Assembly (NCBI GenBank): GCA_009784975.1
Contig: WQXG01000001.1
Span: 1 to 64,000 of the forward strand
Reading direction: 5' to 3'
Length of the DNA stretch: 64,000 nucleotides
Source: Treponema sp.
GTDB lineage: Bacteria > Spirochaetota > Spirochaetia > Treponematales > Breznakiellaceae
The position numbers and the translations under genes are program-made. Below the pieces are notes generated by a model. That model did no database searches, was not told the DNA's origin, and saw nothing but the letters and a program-made list of their open reading frames with translations. Numbering within the stretch: the stretch's first letter is position 1; each line of letters starts with the position of its first letter. This document shows positions 1 to 10,329 of this stretch, in pieces.

Positions 1-59
1 ACCGCTTCTGTTTTAAATTCCTGTGTGTACTGTCGTCTTTCTTTCATTTTCTTTGCCAT
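1..59 (-). CDS. IS3-family transposase OrfA, N-terminal fragment (runs off left edge)
   Basis: Too short for the ORF track. On the minus strand an ATG preceded by AGGAGAGG opens a frame that reads MAKKMKERRQYTQEFKTEA and continues past base 1. The 'RR.YTQEFKTEA' pattern is the usual start of the helix-turn-helix OrfA protein of IS3/IS911-type insertion sequences, which binds the element ends. Only 19 residues are visible, so the family call rests on one motif. The element's end probably lies near base 117, where homology to the downstream repeat-protein gene starts, suggesting that the IS disrupted that gene. Confidence 0.6.
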   Translation of the reverse strand, partial: MAKKMKERRQYTQEFKTEA

Positions 60-117
60 TTTTCCTCTCCTTACATTGTAATTTGTGCTTATCTTTGTGT
101 ATACCGGAGGGGGGTAA

Positions 118-240
118 ACCCATAGTGTTACCCATAGAATAAACGGTAATGAAATCAGAGATGTTTCTGATAGGGTCGTCAGCAGATTGAATGATAATGA
201 AGTTAGAGACATTGGTGATTCTGTAACTCATAGGTTTTAA
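118..240 (+). pseudogene. 3' remnant of an EIRD-repeat protein gene
   Basis: The plus-strand frame ending in TAA at 238-240 reads THSVTHRINGNEIRDVSDRV and continues to NEVRDIGDSVTHRF. This matches the C-terminal half of the intact gene at 9099-9338. Upstream the frame meets TAA at 115-117, there is no start codon, and homology stops beside the IS3-like transposase start. It is therefore read as a 5'-truncated copy, probably cut by the insertion. It is followed by a 90-aa gene in the same arrangement as the second copy at 616-968. The minus-strand ORF 13-231 in the track is its antisense shadow. Confidence 0.7.
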
Positions 241-272
241 AAATATATAAATATCTATAGGAGGATATTAAA

Positions 273-545
273 ATGGTTTATTATGTTGTTGATTCATGTC
301 ATAATGACCGCTCGGGTGGCGGCGCAGAAGGATGGATGTATTTAAAAGAAGTGCAGGGAGAATCTATGCCAAAAAGTAGTTTGAATCATAACGCTAATGG
401 GTTCATAAGAATGGAATACTTTTCCACTTATAAAGAGGCAAAAGATTTTTTTCAAACGAATTTTATGGCATATTTGAATGGACGTAATTTTTATATAGAT
501 ACGCACGATATGGTAGGAAATGATAAATGTATTGTTGATAACTAG
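273..545 (+). CDS. Uncharacterised 90-aa protein, copy A
   Basis: Function not recognised. The start is fixed by AGGAGG eight bases upstream of ATG. The protein is soluble, with no signal peptide or membrane segment. It begins MVYYVVDSCHN, has a Gly-rich turn (GGGAEGW), a central 'NHNANGFIRMEYFSTYKEA' stretch and ends 'YIDTHDMVGNDKCIVDN'. It is paralogous to the gene at 696-968, with the closest identity at the N-terminus and in 'NANGF.R.EY.STYKEA'. Both copies follow an EIRD-repeat gene, so the two products may act together. An immunity or accessory role is possible but is only inference. Confidence 0.75.
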   Translation: MVYYVVDSCHNDRSGGGAEGWMYLKEVQGESMPKSSLNHNANGFIRMEYFSTYKEAKDFFQTNFMAYLNGRNFYIDTHDMVGNDKCIVDN

Positions 546-615
546 GTTAAATTAGATGTTTTCATAAAATATTTTACAAAAGTAAAAATAGAAGAACTAT
601 TTCAAGGAGCAAATT

Positions 616-663
616 ATGGCAGACATTAGAGACATTAATGGCAATGTTACCCATAGGTTTTAA
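616..663 (+). CDS. 15-aa mini version of the EIRD-repeat protein
   Basis: ATG with AAGGAG upstream opens a frame coding MADIRDINGNVTHRF and stopping at TAA. The first 14 residues match the first unit of the full protein at 9099 almost exactly, and the final 'VTHRF-stop' matches its end. The copy therefore has a start, one unit and a tail, with all middle units missing. This fits loss of the 48-bp repeats by slippage or recombination. Whether a 15-residue peptide is made is unknown; it may be a relic. Confidence 0.55.
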   Translation: MADIRDINGNVTHRF

Positions 664-695
664 AAAATATAAATATCTACTAGGAGGATATTAAA

Positions 696-968
696 ATGGT
701 TTATTATGTTTTTGATTCGTGTCATAACTATACCGCAAATGGTGGTGCAGAAGGCTGGATGGTACTTAAAGAGGAACAGGGAGAATCTATGCCCGAAGGT
801 AGTATGGTTCATAATGCTAATGGGTTCACAAGAACGGAATACTATTCCACTTATAAAGAGGCAGAAGAAATATTTCGAAGAAATTTTTCGGACTACTCGC
901 GTGCAAAAAATCAATATATAGAAACACACGATATGGTAATGAATGATAGATATATTATTAATACTTAA
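696..968 (+). CDS. Uncharacterised 90-aa protein, copy B
   Basis: Paralogue of 273-545 with the same length and the same AGGAGG-ATG context. It begins MVYYVFDSCHNYTANGG and ends 'YIETHDMVMNDRYIINT'. Differences cluster after residue 50 ('EEIFRRNFSDYSRAKNQ' against 'KDFFQTNFMAYLNGRNF'). No known domain, signal peptide or membrane helix was seen. The ORFs 660-929 (minus) and 706-921 (plus) in the track are shadows of this gene. The conserved N-terminal half with a divergent C-terminal half would suit a partner-specific protein, which is inference only. Confidence 0.75.
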   Translation: MVYYVFDSCHNYTANGGAEGWMVLKEEQGESMPEGSMVHNANGFTRTEYYSTYKEAEEIFRRNFSDYSRAKNQYIETHDMVMNDRYIINT

Positions 969-1110: not shown

Positions 1111-1224
1111 ATGACTTACAGCAAACCTCAGGTACTTGCACAAAACAGCAAGCAAGGATCATTTGCAGCGGGTTGTCCAGCTGAAAACAGATGGTGGTGT
1201 CAAAACTGCGAAATGAAACCGTAA
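1111..1224 (+). CDS. Probable RiPP precursor peptide, 37 aa
   Basis: Too short for the ORF track. ATG follows a strong AGGAG six to seven bases upstream. The peptide has a polar leader (MTYSKPQVLAQNSKQ), a 'GSFAAGCP' motif that looks like a leader/core boundary, and a compact C-terminus 'AENRWWCQNCEMKP' with three Cys in total and two adjacent Trp. The next gene, 64 bp downstream, encodes an RRE-bearing radical SAM/SPASM enzyme, the standard partner of such peptides. Thioether crosslinks from Cys (sactipeptide or ranthipeptide type), or Trp-based crosslinks, are the likeliest modifications, but chemistry cannot be read from sequence. No dedicated peptidase or transporter is visible nearby. 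Confidence 0.8.
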   Translation: MTYSKPQVLAQNSKQGSFAAGCPAENRWWCQNCEMKP

Positions 1225-1288
1225 TTTATTCTGAGAAAAAGAGTTTTTTCTGTTCTCTTGAAAAACAGAATTTAAAATAAGGAGTAAA

Positions 1289-2728
1289 ATGCTCTATCGG
1301 CAAAAATTCGATACCTTTATTCGCCGCTACGATGACGTGGGATATATTATGAATAAAAGCGACTTAAGTGACCGTGTCGTCGATCTAGCAGGAGCTGTTT
1401 TTCTCGAAGTGCTTTCTCGGAAAGGTCAGAGTATAGAAGTGCTTGCTGTGAAAATTGCACGAACATTTATTGACGTTGATATAAATACATTAGAAAAAGA
1501 TGCTGCAGAATTTTATGCCATGTTAGAAGAGGATGGCTTCATAGTCTCTGGCGAAACGGAAGAGGAACTTGACAGAAAAGATACACGCTTTTCGTATTCT
1601 ACGTTGAATCCTAAAACTGTCAGAACCGATTTTACCCCTGGAATTAAACGTGTGAACAAAACTACCCAAGAATTTCTTAATGAAAATTTCAAGGATAATC
1701 CGCATTTAGCTTCATTCCAAATAGAGCTTACAAGTCGTTGTAACGAGCGTTGTATTCATTGTTATATTCCACACAAATATAAACTCGAAGATATTGCTCC
1801 AGATTTTTTTTATGACGTGCTTGACCAATGTAGAAATATGGGATTACTCAGTTTAACTCTATCTGGTGGTGAACCGATGTTACATCCAATGTTTTGCGAT
1901 TTTTTGAGTAAAGCAAAGGAATATGATTTTTCTATCAACATTCTTTCTAACTTCACCCTTCTTAACGACGAAATAATTGCAGAAATGAAGGCAAACCGCC
2001 TTTCTAGTGTTCAGGTATCGCTGTACAGTATGAAACCAGAAATACACGATGGTATTACGAAACTTCCTGGCTCTTTTGAAAAAACGAAAAACTCAATTCT
2101 GAAGTTGATTGAAAACAATATACCATTGCAAATAAGCTGTCCCACCATGAAACAAAACAAAAATTGCTATATTGATGTAATGAAGTGGGCACGAGAGAAC
2201 AAATGTCGCACGGTATCTGACTTCATAATGATGGCACGCTACGACGGTTGTGTCGAAAATTTGGAAAACCGACTTTCTATTGATGAGACGGAAAAACTTA
2301 TAAATGATGTTCTTGACAACGATCAAGAATATAGGATGGAATTGCTAGGTGCAAATATCGATGCTATCAATGTTCGGGATATTTCCGAAGACAAAATTTG
2401 TGGTGTGTGTATTGATACTCTGTGCATGGTGGCAAATGGTAATGTCTATCCTTGCTCTGGTTGGCAGAGCTATGTTTGTGGCAATTTAAAAGAAACCCCA
2501 CTACGTGAGATTTGGGAAAACTCATCCAAGGTCATGTATTTGCGTAGCTTGCGTAAAAAAGATTTCCCAATATGCCTTGAATGTATAGATAGAAATTTCT
2601 GTGCGATGTGCATGGTTCGCAATGGTAATGAGGATCCTGATGGTAATTTTCTAAAAATTAACGAGCACTTCTGTAAGGTAGCAGCACTAAATCGTAAAAT
2701 CGTTTTAGAATGGAAAAAAGCACACTAG
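1289..2728 (+). CDS. Radical SAM/SPASM peptide maturase with N-terminal PqqD-like RRE
   Basis: A 479-aa protein with the layout of RiPP-modifying radical SAM enzymes. Residues ~1-110 resemble a PqqD-type RiPP recognition element that binds the leader peptide. Residues ~145-330 hold the radical SAM core with the 4Fe-4S motif CNERCIHC and the GGEP motif (LSGGEPMLHP). Residues ~365-465 form a SPASM domain rich in Cys (CGVC, NGNVYPCSGW, CLECIDRNFCAMC, FC) for auxiliary clusters. Start: ATG preceded by AAGGAG. Its place right after the Cys/Trp peptide at 1111 makes that peptide its probable substrate. Confidence 0.88.
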   Translation: MLYRQKFDTFIRRYDDVGYIMNKSDLSDRVVDLAGAVFLEVLSRKGQSIEVLAVKIARTFIDVDINTLEKDAAEFYAMLEEDGFIVSGETEEELDRKDTRFSYSTLNPKTVRTDFTPGIKRVNKTTQEFLNENFKDNPHLASFQIELTSRCNERCIHCYIPHKYKLEDIAPDFFYDVLDQCRNMGLLSLTLSGGEPMLHPMFCDFLSKAKEYDFSINILSNFTLLNDEIIAEMKANRLSSVQVSLYSMKPEIHDGITKLPGSFEKTKNSILKLIENNIPLQISCPTMKQNKNCYIDVMKWARENKCRTVSDFIMMARYDGCVENLENRLSIDETEKLINDVLDNDQEYRMELLGANIDAINVRDISEDKICGVCIDTLCMVANGNVYPCSGWQSYVCGNLKETPLREIWENSSKVMYLRSLRKKDFPICLECIDRNFCAMCMVRNGNEDPDGNFLKINEHFCKVAALNRKIVLEWKKAH

Positions 2729-2746
2729 TCAATTTGGAGATTAATT

Positions 2747-3190
2747 TTGCATTGTTCAGTATATGACATAGGTAAATTGACGGATTATAAATTCGTTGTT
2801 ATATTTGCTCGTTTTAATTATAAATGGGTATTATGCAAACATAAAGATAGAATTACCTGGGAGTTACCCGGAGGGGGTATCAAACTTGGTGAGACAACAA
2901 TAGATGCAGCAAAAAGAGAGTTATATGAGGAAACAGGAGCAATAAATTTCAGCATCATTCCTATTTGTGATTATAGTTTTTCATTATCAAACGCTCAGGT
3001 ATTTTTTGCAAGTATTGATAATATTGGTAATATCCCAGAAAGTGAAATTGATTATGTGCAATTTTTTGATACATTTCCTGAGGATATAACATATCCTGAG
3101 GATAAAAACGAATTAATACCATATGTTCTAAATAAAATAAAAGAGAGGAATATATATGATTGTAAAACATACTATAGACGATTTCAATAA
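2747..3190 (+). CDS. Nudix hydrolase (YtkD/MutT-like)
   Basis: A 147-aa protein with a full Nudix box (GGGIKLGETTIDAAKRELYEETG) spanning about residues 42-65, which binds Mg2+ and cleaves nucleoside-diphosphate-linked substrates. The 'TWELPGGG' lead-in is like YtkD-type nucleoside triphosphatases. The start is a TTG with GGAG upstream, 18 bp after the maturase stop. The gene overlaps the following methyltransferase by 35 bp, showing tight coupling. The substrate is unknown. It could handle a nucleotide cofactor or a pathway intermediate, or be a passenger resistance-type gene in the island. Confidence 0.82.
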   Translation: MHCSVYDIGKLTDYKFVVIFARFNYKWVLCKHKDRITWELPGGGIKLGETTIDAAKRELYEETGAINFSIIPICDYSFSLSNAQVFFASIDNIGNIPESEIDYVQFFDTFPEDITYPEDKNELIPYVLNKIKERNIYDCKTYYRRFQ

Positions 3191-4013
3191 CCTTTGGCAA
3201 TTATCAGAGGCTGGTAAATCCGCAAATTCAAAAGTGTTTTGGGCAGATATAGCCGACAATTGGATTTCTGAATTCGTTTCAGAGGAAAAAGGTAAGCCTT
3301 GGGTTCATCATAGAGTATGTGCAACATCAAATTATTTAAAACAAAACGATTTGATAAACTCGAAATGTTCTGTTGTTGATATTGGATGCGGTCCAGGTCT
3401 TTTTGTAATAGAATTTGCTAAAACTGCAAAATACGCAATGGGTATAGATTATTCAAATCGTTTTATTCAATATGGTCGCGATGTTGCAAAAATTCAAGGA
3501 ATACATAATGTAGAATTTTGTGAATATGATTTTGAAAATATAGATATTGATAGCATGGGACTTACAGGAGCCTTTGATTTAGCATTTTCTTGTATAAGTG
3601 GTGCGATTTGTTCTTTGGAATCAATTAATAAACTAATGAAGATGAGTCATTCATGGTGCTATTGTTCAAATTTTGTAAGTGTGAATGATAGTCTTATAAA
3701 AGCAATTTGTTATGATATTTTTGGAGAACATTATAAATCTCATCATAATGGAACTGGCTTCTACTCTCTTTTTAATATTCTTTGGTTAATGGGTTATCGT
3801 CCTGAAACAAACTACTTTGTAGAGTCTCATACAGAAGTAATTGTACCTACATGGGAAAAAGCACAAGAATTTGCAAATAGGTGTCATCATAAAACACCAG
3901 AAGAAACAGAAAAAATATTTAATTGGCTTAATTCACATAGAGAGATAGAGCGGAAGGTAGAATATGCCTACGGTGGAATTCTTTGGGATATTCGTATAAA
4001 GGATGGGCGCTAA
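3156..4013 (+). CDS. Class I SAM-dependent methyltransferase
   Basis: A 285-aa Rossmann-fold methyltransferase. Motif I is 'VVDIGCGPGLFVIEFA' at about residues 72-87, followed by an acidic end of beta-2 (AMGIDYS) and 'FDLAFSCISGAI' as the motif IV region. The N-terminal ~60 residues (WADIADNWISEF) form a cap as in small-molecule methyltransferases. It overlaps the Nudix gene by 35 bp and precedes the second radical SAM gene by 48 bp. The acceptor is unknown; in this context a modified peptide or small metabolite is possible. Confidence 0.82.
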   Translation: MIVKHTIDDFNNLWQLSEAGKSANSKVFWADIADNWISEFVSEEKGKPWVHHRVCATSNYLKQNDLINSKCSVVDIGCGPGLFVIEFAKTAKYAMGIDYSNRFIQYGRDVAKIQGIHNVEFCEYDFENIDIDSMGLTGAFDLAFSCISGAICSLESINKLMKMSHSWCYCSNFVSVNDSLIKAICYDIFGEHYKSHHNGTGFYSLFNILWLMGYRPETNYFVESHTEVIVPTWEKAQEFANRCHHKTPEETEKIFNWLNSHREIERKVEYAYGGILWDIRIKDGR

Positions 4014-4061
4014 GTAAATAAAGATACTGTGAAAGATAAATATTAACTAAGGAGTAATAAT

Positions 4062-5033
4062 ATGCAAAAAAACAATGTTTTAAATAATATTACAGTGGCA
4101 AAGATCGTTACTGGTACTTACGGACAAAAGGGTTGTACTTGTAATTGCCCTGGATGTTTTTTAGGAACTTATGATGCATTAGGTAAACCAAAATATCAAG
4201 GGACAATAGAGCAAGTTATTGAAATGGTATCCCTATTACCAAACTTGAAGTCTGTCATATTATATGGAAATCCGGATATATCTGTTGATCCGCAGTTTTG
4301 TAATGAAGCAGCAAAATATCTTCAATCCCTTAAAAAAAGTATAGTTATGTTTACTTCTGGTATTGGCGGTGCAAAAATAATTAAAGAAATTATGAATGGT
4401 ATTAATCCTGAATCTGTTTCAATAAATATTTCTGTTGATTCAATTGATGAGAAAAAACTTCGTATGTTACGGGGATGTAATATATCATTACAAAACATTG
4501 TTGATAGTATGATGTGTTGTAATGAAATAAAAGTTCCTTTTAGTATATCAACAAATATTTGGCCATTGACAGCAAATGATGACTTTTTTAATTTTAAAAA
4601 ATATTTTTTATCGTACGGTGCTCAAAAAATCCGTTTTCATTTTGGATCACCTGATGGTGCAATAACAGAAATGCCCCATATTAATGAAGATTCATTTTTA
4701 GAAATAAGAAATAAATTAAGAGAAGTGGGCGGCAGGGTACCTGCTATTCTTGTTACTAAAGAAGAATATGTCAAATGGAAGCTGGATACCTATCGCCCAC
4801 AGTGTATTAAAGCACATAAACTGCATGTTTTTCTTGAGCAAGATGGAATAAAAGCAGCAGCATGCTGCGGAATATTAGCACAACAAAATCCAGAAAAACA
4901 TATTGTTGACATCAGAAAAGTTGAACATCTTGAATCAAGCAATGTAAAACGGTGTCCTTGTGCAGAAAAAAGTTTGGGATATAAATGTAATTTTTTAATT
5001 CCTGTTTGCAGAAGTTTTAGCTGTCCGGAATAA
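4062..5033 (+). CDS. Second radical SAM protein with Cys-rich C-terminus
   Basis: A 323-aa protein. The cluster motif is CTCNCPGC (CxxxCxxC with an extra Cys) at about residues 26-33, and the core continues with 'SVILYGNPDIS' in place of the usual GGEP. The C-terminal ~80 residues carry about eight Cys (ACC, CPC, CNF, VCRSFSCPE), suggesting one or more auxiliary iron-sulfur clusters. It has no RRE domain. AAGGAG precedes the ATG. It sits 51 bp before a Cys-rich flavoprotein, so the two may form a redox pair. The substrate is not predictable. Confidence 0.8.
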   Translation: MQKNNVLNNITVAKIVTGTYGQKGCTCNCPGCFLGTYDALGKPKYQGTIEQVIEMVSLLPNLKSVILYGNPDISVDPQFCNEAAKYLQSLKKSIVMFTSGIGGAKIIKEIMNGINPESVSINISVDSIDEKKLRMLRGCNISLQNIVDSMMCCNEIKVPFSISTNIWPLTANDDFFNFKKYFLSYGAQKIRFHFGSPDGAITEMPHINEDSFLEIRNKLREVGGRVPAILVTKEEYVKWKLDTYRPQCIKAHKLHVFLEQDGIKAAACCGILAQQNPEKHIVDIRKVEHLESSNVKRCPCAEKSLGYKCNFLIPVCRSFSCPE

Positions 5034-5084
5034 GTTTTATAAGAAATAAAGAATCTAATTTAATATAAAATGAGGTAATGAAAA

Positions 5085-6434
5085 TTGTTTGATGTTGTAA
5101 TTATTGGTGCTGGTCCAGCAGGATTATCTGCGGCATATTCATTAGTAAAAAATAATTCTAAACTAAAGGTTGCATTATTTGAGGCTGGTAGTAGCAGAGA
5201 TAAAAGTATATGTAGTTTACCAACAGAATCACAATGTAAAAAATGTGAAAATTGCGAAACAATTACAGGTTTTGGTGGATGCTTTTTGCCCTTTCATGCA
5301 TCAAAACTCAGCTTTCCTCCATCGGGTAAGCGATTGGCAAAAATTATGGGAGATGATGAATACAAAAGAATTTGTAAAATTATTTGGTCTTTATATTGTG
5401 ATTTAATTAAAAAACCTGATTTGGTTTATCCAAAACTAATAGAGAACATCAATTTACTGGAACGTTCAATAATATCACGTAATTGTGAAATGGTTTTATA
5501 CAAATATCCAATTCATCTCTCAAATGAAAAAGAACATTCACTATTCATTAATGAAATATATAAAACATTGGTAGAAAATGATGTAGAAATATTTACTAAC
5601 CAGTTTATTGATATTGAACATAATATTGATATTAAAAATAAAACATTGACAATACGTGGAAATGACACTATTAAGTTCAAGAGTATCTTTTTGGCAACTG
5701 GAAGACGTGGTTTTAATCAAACGCAAAACTTTTTTAATGCAAATGGAATTTTAAGAAAAAAAGAAAATGCTAATTTTGGTATTAGATATATGATACCATC
5801 AAAATATCTCAATATAATATCCTCCTTACATCCAGATTTTAAAGTAAAACTTCAAACGCCAGAAGCAGAACTTGAGACGTTTTGTTTCAGTAATAGTCAT
5901 AACGGAGGACGTGTTGACTTTTTACAATATGATGAATTTTTAAATATAGATGGGCATATCTCTGTTAATGCTGAAGGTGATATGATAAAAAATATGGCTT
6001 ATGGAAATTTTGCAGTACTCTATAAAAACCTCAAAAAAATTATAACCTACAAAGAAATTGTTTCTCGTATAGATCAAATGACTATTCATAATTTTAAACG
6101 AATTCCCATTGGGAATTCTTTATTTGTATCAAACAATTCTGAGTTATCGCAATTTTTTCACGAATTTGAGTTTAAAAGCATAATTAAATTTTCTATGGAT
6201 ATTTTTAACATTATCGCAGACCTTAATAAGATTGATTTAGATAATCTTCTAAAAGAAATATATGTATATGGTCCTGAAATAGAAAATATCTGGGGTGAAA
6301 TTAAAATAATAAATAGCTCTTTTGAAATTGCTGATAATGTTTTTGCAATTGGCGATTGTACAGGTCTTGCTCAAGGGGTTATTTCATCCATGGCAATGGG
6401 ATATAAAGCAGGTGAAATGTATGGGTGTAAATAA
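5085..6434 (+). CDS. FAD-dependent oxidoreductase (COG2509-like)
   Basis: A 449-aa flavoprotein. The N-terminus 'VVIIGAGPAGLSAAYSL' is a dinucleotide-binding GxGxxG motif. Residues ~43-65 contain a Cys cluster (CSLPTESQCKKCENC) followed by 'GFGGCFLPFHASKLSF', which parallels the Cys-rich and 'GxGGAGAFSDGKL' region of COG2509 dehydrogenases. The C-terminus has the FAD-contact motif 'VFAIGDCTGLAQGVISSMAMG'. The start is TTG with GAGG ten bases upstream. Neighbouring radical SAM genes suggest a joint redox or dehydrogenation role in the island's pathway (inference). Confidence 0.82.
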   Translation: MFDVVIIGAGPAGLSAAYSLVKNNSKLKVALFEAGSSRDKSICSLPTESQCKKCENCETITGFGGCFLPFHASKLSFPPSGKRLAKIMGDDEYKRICKIIWSLYCDLIKKPDLVYPKLIENINLLERSIISRNCEMVLYKYPIHLSNEKEHSLFINEIYKTLVENDVEIFTNQFIDIEHNIDIKNKTLTIRGNDTIKFKSIFLATGRRGFNQTQNFFNANGILRKKENANFGIRYMIPSKYLNIISSLHPDFKVKLQTPEAELETFCFSNSHNGGRVDFLQYDEFLNIDGHISVNAEGDMIKNMAYGNFAVLYKNLKKIITYKEIVSRIDQMTIHNFKRIPIGNSLFVSNNSELSQFFHEFEFKSIIKFSMDIFNIIADLNKIDLDNLLKEIYVYGPEIENIWGEIKIINSSFEIADNVFAIGDCTGLAQGVISSMAMGYKAGEMYGCK

Positions 6435-6475
6435 TAAACCCCAGTCTATACTGTGGCTGAATGAAGGATAAAAGT

Positions 6476-7144
6476 ATGAATGAAGATATTAGGAAATATT
6501 TTGATAGAGCAGAAAAGTACGAAAAATCTCGCCCAGAATATCCAAAAATTATTTTGGATTATTTATTAAGTTTTGATTTTTCAAAAAATACAATAATCGC
6601 CGATATTGGTTCTGGTACAGGAAAATTATCAAAAATATTTCTGGAAAATGGTAATAAAGTATATACTGTAGAACCAAATGAAAATATGAGAAAAATGACT
6701 GATTCATTATTTGGTAAATATAGTAATTATCATTCAATGAATGGAACCGCAGAAAATACAGGATTACCAGATAAAAGCATTGATATCATTACTGTTGCAC
6801 AAGCATTTCACTGGTTTGATACAATAAAAGCATTAATGGAATTTAGAAAAATATTAAAAGATAATGGATTATTGATTTTATTATGGAATAAAAGTAATGC
6901 GAAAACGATATTCCAAAAAGAAATTAATAATATATTTAGTAATATTATTAATAAAAATGAAACGATTCATAACAAATTATCAGAAAATGACATAATAAAT
7001 ACATTTAAAATATTTTATAAAAAAGTTGTTATTGAAAATTATGCGGATAATGATTTCAATGATGTGATAGATGGAATATTTTCTTATCCTTATGCTCCGG
7101 AAAAAGGTACATCAGAATATAAAGAAATATATAATAAGATATAA
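6476..7144 (+). CDS. SAM-dependent methyltransferase, C-terminus cut by in-frame TAA
   Basis: A UbiE/YafE-like class I methyltransferase. The product starts MNEDIRKYFDRAEKYEKSRP, with motif I 'IADIGSGTGKLSKIF', 'VEPNENM', and 'AQAFHWFD'. ATG 6476 is preferred over 6461 because AAGGAT lies just before it. The protein ends '..YKEIYNKI' at TAA 7142-7144, but the same frame continues for 25 codons to TAA 7220-7222, directly abutting the next ATG. The downstream residues look like the normal C-terminal strands of this family. A nonsense mutation, possibly GAA to TAA, is the simplest reading. The shortened protein may have reduced or no activity. Confidence 0.75.
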   Translation: MNEDIRKYFDRAEKYEKSRPEYPKIILDYLLSFDFSKNTIIADIGSGTGKLSKIFLENGNKVYTVEPNENMRKMTDSLFGKYSNYHSMNGTAENTGLPDKSIDIITVAQAFHWFDTIKALMEFRKILKDNGLLILLWNKSNAKTIFQKEINNIFSNIINKNETIHNKLSENDIINTFKIFYKKVVIENYADNDFNDVIDGIFSYPYAPEKGTSEYKEIYNKI

Positions 7145-7222
7145 ATAATATTTAATAAATATAATAATAATGGAATAGTTAAATATAATTATGATACAGA
7201 AATATATATTGGGAGTATATAA
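7145..7222 (+). pseudogene. Detached C-terminal coding remnant of the methyltransferase
   Basis: Read in the frame of the upstream gene, this stretch encodes IIFNKYNNNGIVKYNYDTEIY and then IGSI before TAA. The 'FDKY..NG.V.F.Y.T..Y.G' pattern is the usual end of this methyltransferase family. It also holds the GGGAG ribosome-binding site of the next gene, explaining why it is otherwise preserved. There is no start codon for separate translation. Confidence 0.65.
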
Positions 7223-8143
7223 ATGATATACAAATTATTAAAAAATTGGGATATAGCCGAAATTCTTTCATATACAGAATTGAAGAAAAATATTTATAAA
7301 ATAGAAACAACAGGAAATTATTACATCTTGAAATCTAAAAATTATTCTAATAAAAATATATATGAAAACTATCATTTTAATGATAAAAATATTGAATTTC
7401 AAATTGAAAGTCCTATTTTAACTAAAGAAGGAAAATATTATATAGAAAATAAAGAGAAAATACATGTTCTGTTTAATTTTATAGATGGGAAACATATTAA
7501 TGAATATTATAACGATAACTATTTAATACAAGCAGAGTTAATAGGGAAGACAATCGCTTCTTTTCATTCTATTATTAGAGAAAAAGAGAAATATAACTTA
7601 AAAAATATGGATATAACTGAAAATATAATAAATAATGTGTATAATACAATATTAAATAATAAAACAATTATTGATTTTAATTTTATTTCTATGTTAATAG
7701 ATGACTTTAAGCATAACTTTATTTCATTATATAACGATTTACCAAAACAAATTATTCATAAAGATATTCATACAAAAAATATCTTGTTTAAAAACGGTAA
7801 AATATCTGGAATTATTGATTTGGAATTATTAACATATGGGATTAGAATATATGATGTATGTTATTGTTCTGCAAATATTTTATGTGATAAAATTGATGAC
7901 AACATAAATATAAATAAATGGTTCAAAATATTTTATCAGATAATTAAAGCATATAATAGTATTATAAAAATAACAGAAAATGAAAAGAAAGGTATAGTTT
8001 ATGTTCTTTATTCAAACGAATTAAAATATATAGATTTTTATATTAAACAAAAAAATATGAAAGGAATAAAAACAGCAGAAAAAATGTTAAAATGGTTATA
8101 CGGGAATCAACAAAAAATTAAAAATGAAATTGATAAAATATAA
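7223..8143 (+). CDS. APH-family phosphotransferase (aminoglycoside/choline kinase-like)
   Basis: A 306-aa kinase-fold protein. The catalytic loop 'IIHKDIHTKNILF' carries the HxDxxxxN pattern at about residues 176-187, and the metal-binding 'GIIDLELL' follows. 'YILKSK' near residue 33 may supply the ATP-contacting Lys. The family transfers phosphate to aminoglycosides, choline, homoserine, macrolides and related hydroxyl compounds; the acceptor here is unknown. The reading frame is extremely AT-rich (Ile, Asn, Lys dominate). Its ATG touches the stop of the extended methyltransferase frame, so the two were originally translationally coupled. Confidence 0.8.
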   Translation: MIYKLLKNWDIAEILSYTELKKNIYKIETTGNYYILKSKNYSNKNIYENYHFNDKNIEFQIESPILTKEGKYYIENKEKIHVLFNFIDGKHINEYYNDNYLIQAELIGKTIASFHSIIREKEKYNLKNMDITENIINNVYNTILNNKTIIDFNFISMLIDDFKHNFISLYNDLPKQIIHKDIHTKNILFKNGKISGIIDLELLTYGIRIYDVCYCSANILCDKIDDNININKWFKIFYQIIKAYNSIIKITENEKKGIVYVLYSNELKYIDFYIKQKNMKGIKTAEKMLKWLYGNQQKIKNEIDKI

Positions 8144-8158
8144 GAGGGTATTTTAAGT

Positions 8159-8677
8159 ATGGATAGAAAAAGAGTAATAGCAGCAATAATTTATGAAAGT
8201 AAAATTGCAATGATATACAATATTATTGAACCTAATAAAATGTTTTGGACTCTTCCTGGCGGAAGAGTAGAAAATGGAGAAAATCTGGAAGAAGCTGTAA
8301 TTCGTGAAGCATTAGAAGAAGTAAATTTAAATATAAAAATAATAAGATACCTATTCAGTCGAAAATACTCAGATGGAATTGAACATTGTTTTTTAGGAGA
8401 GCCATTAGATCCGGAAAATATTAAGACTGGAAGTGATCCAGAATATAAAGCAGAAAAACAAATAATTAAAAAAGCAGAATGGAAAAATATATTAGATGTT
8501 AAAAATGATATACAGGTATCAATTGTATTAAAACATTTAACTGAAATTGAATGTTTTAAATATAAAATTAATGATGGTTTTAAGAGTGATAAAGATTTAG
8601 TAATTTCAAATATTGAAATGGCAATTGAAATTGATTCCCAAAATAAAGATTATCGTGAAGCCCTTGAAGAATTATAA
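8159..8677 (+). CDS. Nudix hydrolase
   Basis: A 172-aa protein with the Nudix box 'GGRVENGENLEEAVIREA' followed by LEEV, at about residues 40-62; the preceding 'WTLPGGR' is typical of MutT-like enzymes. The last ~40 residues ('SNIEMAIEIDSQNKDYREAL') form a helical tail not needed for the fold. It lies 15 bp after the kinase gene and ends the AT-rich operon. The ORF 8613-9062 in the track starts inside this gene in another frame; the true next gene begins at 8745. Confidence 0.82.
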   Translation: MDRKRVIAAIIYESKIAMIYNIIEPNKMFWTLPGGRVENGENLEEAVIREALEEVNLNIKIIRYLFSRKYSDGIEHCFLGEPLDPENIKTGSDPEYKAEKQIIKKAEWKNILDVKNDIQVSIVLKHLTEIECFKYKINDGFKSDKDLVISNIEMAIEIDSQNKDYREALEEL

Positions 8678-8744: not shown

Positions 8745-9062
8745 ATGGCAAATGAAAACTGGGAAGAAACCATAACAGCCGAAATTGAAAGATTACACGA
8801 ACAAGCAGATGAAGCAGCATTTGTAAGATTCATTGAATTATCAGATATGGGTAAGGATGCTGGTAATGACAATATGCAAATAATTGGATTAATGAATGCT
8901 GCTGCTATTGCCTGTAAAATGGGTAATTACGAACTTTGTCTTGCTGTAGTAGACAAAGCTAATACAGTTGACGAAGAAATATGTACAAATTATATGCAGA
9001 CACAACCCCGTATGTATGAAATGATGAAGACATTATCAGAAGCAGGCGAGTTTGATAAATAG
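8745..9062 (+). CDS. Uncharacterised 105-aa acidic helical protein
   Basis: Function not recognised. ATG 8745 is chosen over the track start 8613 because AAAGGAG precedes it and the earlier part overlaps the Nudix gene. The protein is acidic, predicted mostly helical ('EIERLHEQADEAAFVRFIEL', 'NAAAIACKMGNYELCLAVVD') and looks like a short TPR-type helical hairpin. No signal peptide. Base composition is more balanced than in the preceding operon. It stands 36 bp before the intact EIRD-repeat gene and may belong with it rather than with the RiPP operon. Confidence 0.7.
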   Translation: MANENWEETITAEIERLHEQADEAAFVRFIELSDMGKDAGNDNMQIIGLMNAAAIACKMGNYELCLAVVDKANTVDEEICTNYMQTQPRMYEMMKTLSEAGEFDK

Positions 9063-9098: not shown

Positions 9099-9338
9099 AT
9101 GGCAGACATTAGAGACGTAAACGGCAATGTAACCCACAGGAGAAACGGAAATGAGATTAGGGATCTTTCTGACAGAGTAACTCACAGAATAAACGGCAAC
9201 GAAATCAGAGACGTTTCTGACAGGGTTACCCACAGGATTAACGGCGATGAAATCAGGGATATTAATGACAGAGTTGTTTATAGAATAAGCGGCAGCGAGA
9301 TAAGGGACGTTGGCGGTTCTGTAACTCATAGGTTTTGA
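9099..9338 (+). CDS. EIRD-repeat protein, intact five-unit copy
   Basis: A 79-aa protein made almost wholly of five 16-residue units with consensus EIRDxSDRVTHRINGN, starting MADIRDVNGN and ending SVTHRF. AAGGAG lies upstream. The D-x-x-x-x-V-x-x-R-x-x-G pattern resembles short beta-hairpin repeat proteins such as the '4-fold beta flower' type, which is a resemblance and not a proven match. Two other copies lie at 118-240 (truncated) and 616-663 (one unit), so the number of units changes. The minus ORF 9036-9329 is its antisense shadow, which is open because the 48-bp repeats keep it free of stops. Confidence 0.75.
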   Translation: MADIRDVNGNVTHRRNGNEIRDLSDRVTHRINGNEIRDVSDRVTHRINGDEIRDINDRVVYRISGSEIRDVGGSVTHRF

Positions 9339-9347
9339 TAAAACTTT

Positions 9348-9605
9348 ATGAACTTAAGAAATAGGAATTATACTAATCCTGACGGAAAAACATTTTACTT
9401 TATGACCAGTAAACCTACTGATGATGAAAAAATAGAAATTTACCTGGTTAACTCATCAAGCAAAGGAACAGATTATTCGTTATGGTATATTAAATCTTTG
9501 GATGATGAGCATTTTTCAATGCGTCCTTATGATGGGGACGATACCAAAGAACTAATTATGGAATTAACGGAAAAATTTCTAGAAACAGCATGGGAAATTT
9601 TGTAG
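9348..9605 (+). CDS. Uncharacterised 85-aa protein after the repeat gene
   Basis: Function not recognised. It begins MNLRNRNYTNPDGKTFYF, has mixed alpha/beta character and ends in an amphipathic helix 'DTKELIMELTEKFLETAWEIL'. It has no clear ribosome-binding site; its ATG is 10 bp after the repeat-protein stop, so coupled translation is likely. Like the 90-aa genes at 273 and 696 it directly follows an EIRD-repeat gene, but its sequence is unrelated to them. That makes the slot behind the repeat gene variable. Confidence 0.65.
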   Translation: MNLRNRNYTNPDGKTFYFMTSKPTDDEKIEIYLVNSSSKGTDYSLWYIKSLDDEHFSMRPYDGDDTKELIMELTEKFLETAWEIL

Positions 9606-9697: not shown

Positions 9698-9928
9698 ATG
9701 CAAACTGCAAAATTATTTTTAAATGGCAGAAGCCAAGCCGTAAGACTTCCAAAAGAATATCAATTTAATGGAAATAATGTTTATATCAGAAGGATTGGAG
9801 AGGCTGTTATGTTATTTCCGGTTGATAAAGAATGGGAAGTGTTTTTACATGGATTAAATAATTTCTCGGATGATTTTATGGCAGAAGGCAGAAATCAGGG
9901 AATTGATCAAAAAAGAGAAGGATTTTAA
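9698..9928 (+). CDS. vapB: Antitoxin VapB (AbrB/MazE-type)
   Basis: A 76-aa protein. Residues 1-45 form an AbrB-type swapped-hairpin DNA-binding domain ('AKLFLNGRSQAVRLPKEYQF') as in VapB/MazE antitoxins; the C-terminal ~30 residues are the disordered toxin-neutralising tail. It shares the TAATG junction with vapC, so the two are translationally coupled. It probably represses its own promoter through the palindrome at 9657-9678. Length is normal for the family. Confidence 0.88.
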   Translation: MQTAKLFLNGRSQAVRLPKEYQFNGNNVYIRRIGEAVMLFPVDKEWEVFLHGLNNFSDDFMAEGRNQGIDQKREGF

Positions 9929-10329
9929 TGTACTTATTTGATACAAACATGTGCATATTCATAATTAAAAGAAAATTCCCAAATGTTATGGATAAATTAA
10001 AGAAAAACAGGAAAAAAGGACTTTATTTATCAAGTATTACTCTTGCTGAACTGGAATTTGGAATAGAAAATGCAAATCCGGATTATAAAGAAAAAAATAC
10101 AATAGCCTTAATGGAATTTTTATCAATTTTTGAAGTAAAAAGTTTTGATGAAAATGCAGCAAAAGAATATGGGATAATCAAAAAGGACCTAAAAGACAGA
10201 AATTGTTTAATTGGTCCTTATGATATGTTAATAGGAGCTCATGCAAAATCACTAAAAATGATATTGGTTACAAATAATACAGACGAATTTCAAAGAATAA
10301 AAGGTCTAAAAATAGAAGATTGGAAATAA
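9928..10329 (+). CDS. vapC: Toxin VapC (PIN-domain ribonuclease)
   Basis: A 133-aa PIN-domain protein. The acidic catalytic residues are visible: D5 in 'MYLFDTNMCIF', E in 'LAELEFGI', D in 'GPYDMLIGAHA' and D/E in 'TNNTDEFQRI'. VapC toxins cut tRNA or rRNA in a Mg2+-dependent way when free of VapB. ATG 9928 overlaps the vapB stop. All key residues are present, so it should be active. It closes the accessory island; the region beyond to 10463 has no gene. Confidence 0.88.
   Translation: MYLFDTNMCIFIIKRKFPNVMDKLKKNRKKGLYLSSITLAELEFGIENANPDYKEKNTIALMEFLSIFEVKSFDENAAKEYGIIKKDLKDRNCLIGPYDMLIGAHAKSLKMILVTNNTDEFQRIKGLKIEDWK

What the first reader, a model, noticed from the sequence alone, without database searches (positions are those of the whole stretch)
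118..968. Small repeat-protein genes with changing unit number, each followed by a variable small gene
Seen: three copies of a gene made of 16-residue EIRD units, with five units (9099), one unit (616) or a truncated end (118). Each is followed by a small gene: two 90-aa paralogues and one unrelated 85-aa protein. Leader sequences are near identical. Inferred: a modular locus where the repeat gene expands and contracts and the second slot is exchanged, as in polymorphic effector/immunity or adhesion cassettes. The relation to beta-flower-type repeats is only a resemblance.
Basis: partly seen in the sequence, partly recalled or inferred. Interest (0 to 1): 0.7.

Follow-up and report, generated by a model that had tools for sequence, protein, structure and literature searches.

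The report
Five-petal beta-flower gene with decaying copies
A termite-gut-type Treponema genome carries one intact gene for a tiny, probably ring-shaped beta-flower protein made of five similar units, plus two broken relatives of it (one cut by a transposon, one shrunk by exactly four units), in a fast-rearranging patch of small genes; it is a new variant of a known but functionally uncharacterised protein fold rather than a proven effector/immunity system.

Summary
The repeats are real. The 9099 gene encodes five 16-residue units and is very likely a five-fold beta-flower: AlphaFold gives ten strands at pLDDT 96; its profile matches Pfam-positive beta-flowers in register (hhalign 97%, E 4e-11); 1zxu, the Tubby-like structure to which beta-flowers were compared, is among its best structural matches. 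Alone it stays below Pfam's Bflower_2 cut-off. The other two copies are relics: the one at 118 is cut by the end of an IS3-like element at the contig start (flower sequence begins at about 123), and the one at 616 is a 15-aa ORF lacking exactly four units (192 bp). Whole-unit loss and nonsense truncation recur in two related Treponema genomes. The 'exchanged second slot' is not supported: the 85-aa family exists in 7 of 39 genus genomes, lies upstream of the flower in one, and in four genomes forms a conserved pair with a 105-aa gene; in the window the flower sits inside that pair. The 90-aa genes are a tandem duplication found only here. No effector, immunity or adhesion signature was found. 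Best reading: a cytosolic beta-flower binding module in a hypervariable, TPR- and toxin-antitoxin-rich island. Its function is unproven.

The parts
1..122 (-). End of an IS3-like insertion sequence (start of orfA, MAKKMKERRQYTQEFKTEA...) that interrupts flower copy 1; also the end of the contig
   Evidence: Same IS end at 75-90% identity with different flanks in G159, G180, G181, G150; orfA/orfB frames in G159; contig C1 starts at window base 1
123..240 (+). Flower copy 1, 3' remnant (SVTHRINGNEIRDVSDRVVSRLNDNEVRDIGDSVTHRF), no start codon left
   Evidence: 68% protein identity to the intact copy over the overlap
273..545 (+). 90-aa protein, paralogue 1, orphan family
   Evidence: Found only in this genome among 195 family genomes; a phylum sample of 296 gave only weak, chance-level hits elsewhere
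616..663 (+). Flower copy 2, collapsed to one unit: MADIRDINGNVTHRF, exactly four units (192 bp) shorter than the intact copy
696..968 (+). 90-aa protein, paralogue 2 (63% identity to paralogue 1; dN/dS about 0.45)
8582..8674 (+). C-terminal tail of the Nudix gene 8159-8677 that matches a TPR protein found next to the 85-aa gene in G163; probable rearrangement scar
   Evidence: Local alignment score 92 versus a maximum of 46 in 300 shuffles
8745..9062 (+). 105-aa protein, conserved partner of the 85-aa gene
   Evidence: 4 of 39 genus genomes; in all four it precedes an 85-aa gene, with the flower in between only here
9099..9338 (+). Intact beta-flower gene, 79 aa, five 16-residue units
   Evidence: AlphaFold pLDDT 96.2, ten strands; hhalign 97.2% to beta-flowers; pN/pS about 0.15 against G166
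9348..9605 (+). 85-aa protein, genus-restricted family, five strands plus a C-terminal helix, starts 9 nt after the flower stop
9698..10329 (+). VapB antitoxin and VapC toxin pair directly downstream (neighbour, not part of the flower unit)
   Evidence: NCBIfam NF047862 and NF047863 above cut-off

Best explanation
The 79-aa gene encodes a small cytosolic five-fold beta-flower: five beta-hairpin units that close into a shallow ten-stranded ring and most likely work as a binding module for a small hydrophobic ligand or a partner protein. Because the units are 48-bp direct repeats, recombination or slippage removes whole units in frame; copies with fewer units, and copies hit by stops or insertion sequences, are decaying relics, while the five-unit form is kept by purifying selection. 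The gene sits in a rearranging island next to small accessory genes (105-aa, 85-aa, 90-aa), TPR/Sel1 genes and a VapBC pair, and ends up beside different neighbours through insertion-sequence and recombination events. Shown here: the repeats, the relics, the IS cut, the neighbour changes, the predicted fold. Inferred: ring closure in vivo, ligand or partner binding, cytosolic location (no signal peptide or lipobox visible by eye).
For: AlphaFold with 11 natural homologues: pLDDT 96.2, pTM 0.78, ten strands in five hairpins. Profile comparison of the EIRD proteins with beta-flowers over the Pfam cut-off: 97.2%, E 4.2e-11, 72 of 79 columns, no gaps. 10 of 11 aligned members hit Bflower_2, best E 3.2e-20. 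Structural second look: 1zxu, the protein used as comparator in the beta-flower paper PMC10584680, Z 5.2, rmsd 3.4, 76 residues. Whole-unit changes and stops in G166 and G153. Purifying selection: pS 0.63 and pN 0.095 against G166; pS 0.37 and pN 0.08 against the G153 remnant. IS cut. 105-aa/85-aa pair conserved in four genomes and split by the flower only here. TPR scar.
Against: Pfam Bflower_2 gives only 16.1 bits for the window protein (cut-off 38). Structural Z values near 5 are not decisive by the tool's own notes, and anti-sigma factor RsfG scores equally. AlphaFold can over-regularise repeat proteins. Even the remnants show low pN/pS, which may reflect recent decay or residual function. 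No experiment known to me links any beta-flower to a ligand.
Confidence: 0.62

Rival explanations
1. Polymorphic effector/immunity-type cassette: the flower is a constant head gene and the following small gene (90-aa or 85-aa) is an exchangeable partner or immunity protein.
For: Short spacing (9 and 32 nt) and same strand; the flower is adjacent to an 85-aa family member in two genomes; all five flower-bearing genus genomes also carry the 85-aa family (P 3.6e-5 in 39 genomes; 0.005 in the 16 genomes at least 90% complete, not corrected for phylogeny); the island also holds toxin-antitoxin genes.
Against: Gene order flips in G166; no flower is seen beside the 85-aa gene in five of seven genomes; the flower hits in two of the five genomes belong to another subfamily on other contigs; no secretion signal, toxin or immunity family hit. 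EIRD flowers alone give only P 0.06.
Confidence: 0.12
2. The flower works with the 85-aa protein as an accessory of the 105-aa/85-aa pair; for example the C-terminal helix of the 85-aa protein fills the ring in trans, replacing the C-terminal hydrophobic helix that other beta-flowers carry and EIRD flowers lack.
For: EIRD flowers end at VTHRF without the hydrophobic tail seen in L011, L012 and L034; the 85-aa model has a conserved C-terminal helix 66-81; adjacency in two genomes in either order.
Against: No complex prediction was possible; most 85-aa genes have no flower beside them; the G153 flower remnant lies on another contig near an Mrr-type endonuclease gene.
Confidence: 0.15
3. The EIRD repeat is not a ring but a trimeric beta-helix of the phage gp5/VgrG needle type, whose repeat is eight residues (16 = 2 x 8).
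For: The phmmer hits in the PDB are led by gp5-type needle chains, best E 8.8e-4.
Against: The alignment-based search weakens that to E 0.045; profile match to beta-flowers E 4e-11; confident ten-strand hairpin model; no phage or secretion genes around.
Confidence: 0.05
4. Unit-number differences are partly assembly artefacts of short-read metagenome binning of tandem repeats.
For: The named relatives are metagenome assemblies, and several contigs break inside or next to these genes.
Against: Units differ at 21-42% of bases and the whole array is only 240 bp; the one-unit copy has its own distinct flanks; G153 and G166 carry independent stop codons.
Confidence: 0.06

Closest known systems
Five-fold beta-flower protein, Pfam Bflower_2 (PF21785), Durairaj et al. 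2023 (PMC10584680)
   Same: Five 16-residue hairpin units, ten strands, in-register profile match; family members with 3 to 6 units in related spirochaetes
   Different: Below the Pfam cut-off on its own; [DNEQ]xxG tip motif in only two of five units; no C-terminal hydrophobic helix, no lipobox or signal peptide seen
Four-fold beta-flower, Pfam Bflower (PF21784)
   Same: Six of 11 aligned relatives also hit it; four-unit forms exist (L009, and G166 up to its TGA)
   Different: The window protein has five units
Tubby C-terminal / LURP-one-like barrel (1zxu), clan CL0395
   Same: 1zxu aligns over residues 1-76, Z 5.2; the Tubby domain is in the same Pfam clan as beta-flowers
   Different: About twice as long, central helix present in Tubby-like barrels, low sequence identity (17%)
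Bacteriophage T4 gp5 / VgrG needle beta-helix
   Same: Period-8 V/I-x-G pattern gives weak hits
   Different: Predicted as a hairpin ring, no phage or secretion context

Membership tests
Bflower_2 (PF21785), five-fold beta-flower | Score above the Pfam gathering cut-off (38 bits) | tested here: not met
   16.1 bits, E 0.011 for the 79-aa protein; homologues L012, L011, L030, L033, L034 exceed it
Bflower_2 (PF21785), five-fold beta-flower | Five repeated beta-hairpins, ten strands | tested here: met
   AlphaFold strands E2-6 to E75-78, pLDDT 96.2
Bflower_2 (PF21785), five-fold beta-flower | Homology to accepted members along the whole length | tested here: met
   hhalign 97.2%, E 4.2e-11, 72 columns without gaps; 10 of 11 aligned members hit the model
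Bflower_2 (PF21785), five-fold beta-flower | Semi-conserved [DNEQ]xxG motif at the hairpin tip | tested here: inconclusive
   Present in units 1 (DVNG) and 5 (DVGG), DxxD in units 2 to 4 (sequence; motif)
Bflower_2 (PF21785), five-fold beta-flower | Closed, shallow barrel | tested here: inconclusive
   Model coordinates not available; full-length alignment to barrels such as 1zxu and FABPs is consistent
Polymorphic effector/immunity cassette | Recognisable toxin, secretion or immunity domain | tested here: not met
   No such hit in Pfam, NCBIfam, PADLOC or PHROGs for the flower, 85-aa, 90-aa or 105-aa proteins
Polymorphic effector/immunity cassette | Conserved head gene followed by an exchangeable downstream gene | tested here: not met
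   85-aa relative is upstream in G166; downstream genes unrelated in G166 and G153
Two-gene toxin-antitoxin module (flower plus 85-aa) | Obligate pairing of the two genes | tested here: not met
   No flower seen beside the 85-aa gene in five of seven genomes, though in G152 the contig ends inside the 85-aa gene

The most novel reading that the evidence does not exclude
This locus catches beta-flower symmetry evolving in nature: 48-bp units are gained or lost whole, so that a five-petal ring turns into a four-petal one (as the G166 protein up to its stop codon might be) while staying functional, and the EIRD flowers, which lack a central helix, use a neighbouring small protein to fill or gate the ring.
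Probability: 0.15. Interest if true: 0.6.

Novelty: new variant of a known kind. Interest (0 to 1): 0.33.

Why it matters
Beta-flowers were named in 2023 from predicted structures, and the papers found here report no experimental function for them. A minimal 79-aa member without signal or helix, with closely similar units and closely related 4-, 3- and 1-unit derivatives, is a good system to test how ring symmetry changes by unit gain and loss and what such rings bind. The genus-restricted 105-aa/85-aa pair is an unannotated gene module in termite-gut-type Treponema.

Tried and rejected
Viral contigs (flower, 90-aa): no relatives. Plasmids (flower, 90-aa) and phages (85-aa, 90-aa): none. PADLOC: nothing; PHROGs: only weak hits. 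85-aa family outside the genus: nothing convincing in 394 class genomes. 85-aa versus 90-aa as distant relatives: rejected. Foldseek against PDB and BFVD for the flower, and PDB for the 85-aa model: no significant match; VIA-align gave only middling Z for the 85-aa model, mostly kinase N-lobes, taken as a common sheet arrangement. The first L006 pN/pS calculation was one codon out of register and was redone. A flower plus 85-aa toxin-antitoxin pair was considered and set aside because the 85-aa gene mostly occurs without a flower beside it.

Full report
Observation. The window is bases 1-64000 of contig C1 of a 2.6 Mb, 73-contig assembly whose nearest named relatives are Treponema metagenome assemblies (that they come from termite guts is my inference from the isolate names). 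The 79-aa gene at 9099-9338 has five 16-residue units (MADIRDVNGNVTHRRN / GNEIRDLSDRVTHRIN / GNEIRDVSDRVTHRIN / GDEIRDINDRVVYRIS / GSEIRDVGGSVTHRF). The copy at 616-663 is a 15-aa ORF, MADIRDINGNVTHRF, with its own ribosome-binding site; it is exactly 192 bp, or four units, shorter. The copy in the first 240 bases keeps only the last two and a half units. The two 90-aa genes lie in a 300-nt direct repeat, 78% identical and 423 bases apart, so the left part of the locus is a tandem duplication of [flower + 90-aa gene].

Why the first copy is short. The first 117-122 bases match, at 75-90% identity, the end of an IS3-like element in four other genomes of the genus, and there the similarity stops at the same place and the flanks differ. 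In G159 the element has orfA and orfB frames. Read outward from the gene, the element's end begins TGGGTTTACCC, with the TG expected for this kind of element. The contig begins inside the element, as is usual for repeated elements in short-read assemblies.

What the protein is. Pfam's Bflower_2 (five-fold beta-flower) is the most plausible hit but is below its cut-off (16.1 of 38 bits). Relatives in the same bacterial family bridge the gap: L009 (E 1.3e-12), L010, L011, L012, L013, some of which exceed the Pfam cut-off. A profile of four EIRD sequences aligned with a profile of five relatives that are over the Pfam cut-off at 97.2% probability, E 4.2e-11, over 72 columns without a gap. AlphaFold, using 11 natural sequences, gave pLDDT 96.2 and ten strands arranged as five hairpins. 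Among solved structures the second-best alignment is 1zxu (Z 5.2, rmsd 3.4, 76 residues), the very Tubby-like protein against which the beta-flower paper compared its fold (PMC10584680). The EIRD subfamily differs from many beta-flowers in having no visible signal peptide or lipobox and no C-terminal hydrophobic helix.

Unit number. Across relatives the number of units ranges from 3 to 6, in line with the four-, five- and six-fold forms in the literature. Within the EIRD subfamily: window 5; G166 has 4 units, a TGA, and a degenerate fifth; G153 has a stop at codon 8 and only 3 units; the 616 copy has 1. Purifying selection is visible (pS 0.63, pN 0.095 against G166; pS 0.37, pN 0.08 against G153), so the full-length gene has been useful, while most other copies look like relics. 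Units are 58-79% identical in DNA, enough for unequal exchange to be plausible.

Neighbours. The 85-aa gene has a 42%-identical relative in G166 that directly precedes the flower, so order is not fixed. Its family occurs in 7 of 39 genus genomes and nowhere convincing outside the genus. The 105-aa gene at 8745-9062 occurs in 4 of 39 genomes and in all four it precedes an 85-aa gene; only in the window does a flower lie between them. All genus genomes with a flower hit also have the 85-aa family (hypergeometric P 3.6e-5 for 39 genomes, 0.005 for the 16 that are at least 90% complete, 0.06 for EIRD flowers alone), which is suggestive but not corrected for phylogeny. The Nudix gene upstream ends in 31 residues that match a TPR protein found beside the 85-aa gene in G163 (score 92, shuffled maximum 46): a likely scar of rearrangement. 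A VapBC pair follows. The 90-aa family is an orphan of this genome.

Mechanism. The most likely reading is a small cytosolic ring protein that binds something (ligand or partner), whose gene changes by whole-unit loss and is carried around in a hypervariable island rich in TPR/Sel1 and toxin-antitoxin genes. The effector/immunity reading is not excluded by experiment but lacks every positive signature tested. Anything about ligand or partner is inference.

Limits. The relatives are metagenome assemblies; contigs often break at these genes (in G152 the 85-aa gene runs off the contig, so its downstream neighbour is unseen); no reads, no complex prediction and no coordinates of the model were available.

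Noticed in passing
window 1111-8677: RiPP-like cluster: a 37-aa peptide MTYSKPQVLAQNSKQGSFAAGCPAENRWWCQNCEMKP followed by a radical SAM/SPASM protein with a PqqD-like N-terminus, Nudix, methyltransferases, a second radical SAM protein, an FAD oxidoreductase and a kinase-like phosphotransferase. The peptide matches no NCBIfam or Pfam family.
   Followed up: partly
window 9698-10329: VapB/VapC pair that scores above the NCBIfam cut-offs for the Leptospira-type VapBC.
   Followed up: yes
window 8582-8674: Nudix gene appears fused in frame to the last 31 residues of a TPR repeat stretch, a likely junction of an inserted cluster.
   Followed up: partly
L006 4878-11599: In G153 the broken flower lies between an Mrr-type restriction endonuclease gene and a 1151-aa HD-CE/AAA protein that looks defence-like, with transposon remnants between.
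   Followed up: no
L011, L012, L034: Beta-flowers with 3 or 5 units and a C-terminal hydrophobic tail such as HAGAALLLLL, one with a signal-like N-terminus, near leucine-rich-repeat, TPR-like or other repeat genes.
   Followed up: partly
L022, L025, L026, L029: 85-aa/105-aa genes repeatedly lie at contig ends in G153, G152 and G154, suggesting that they are multi-copy or strain-variable.
   Followed up: no
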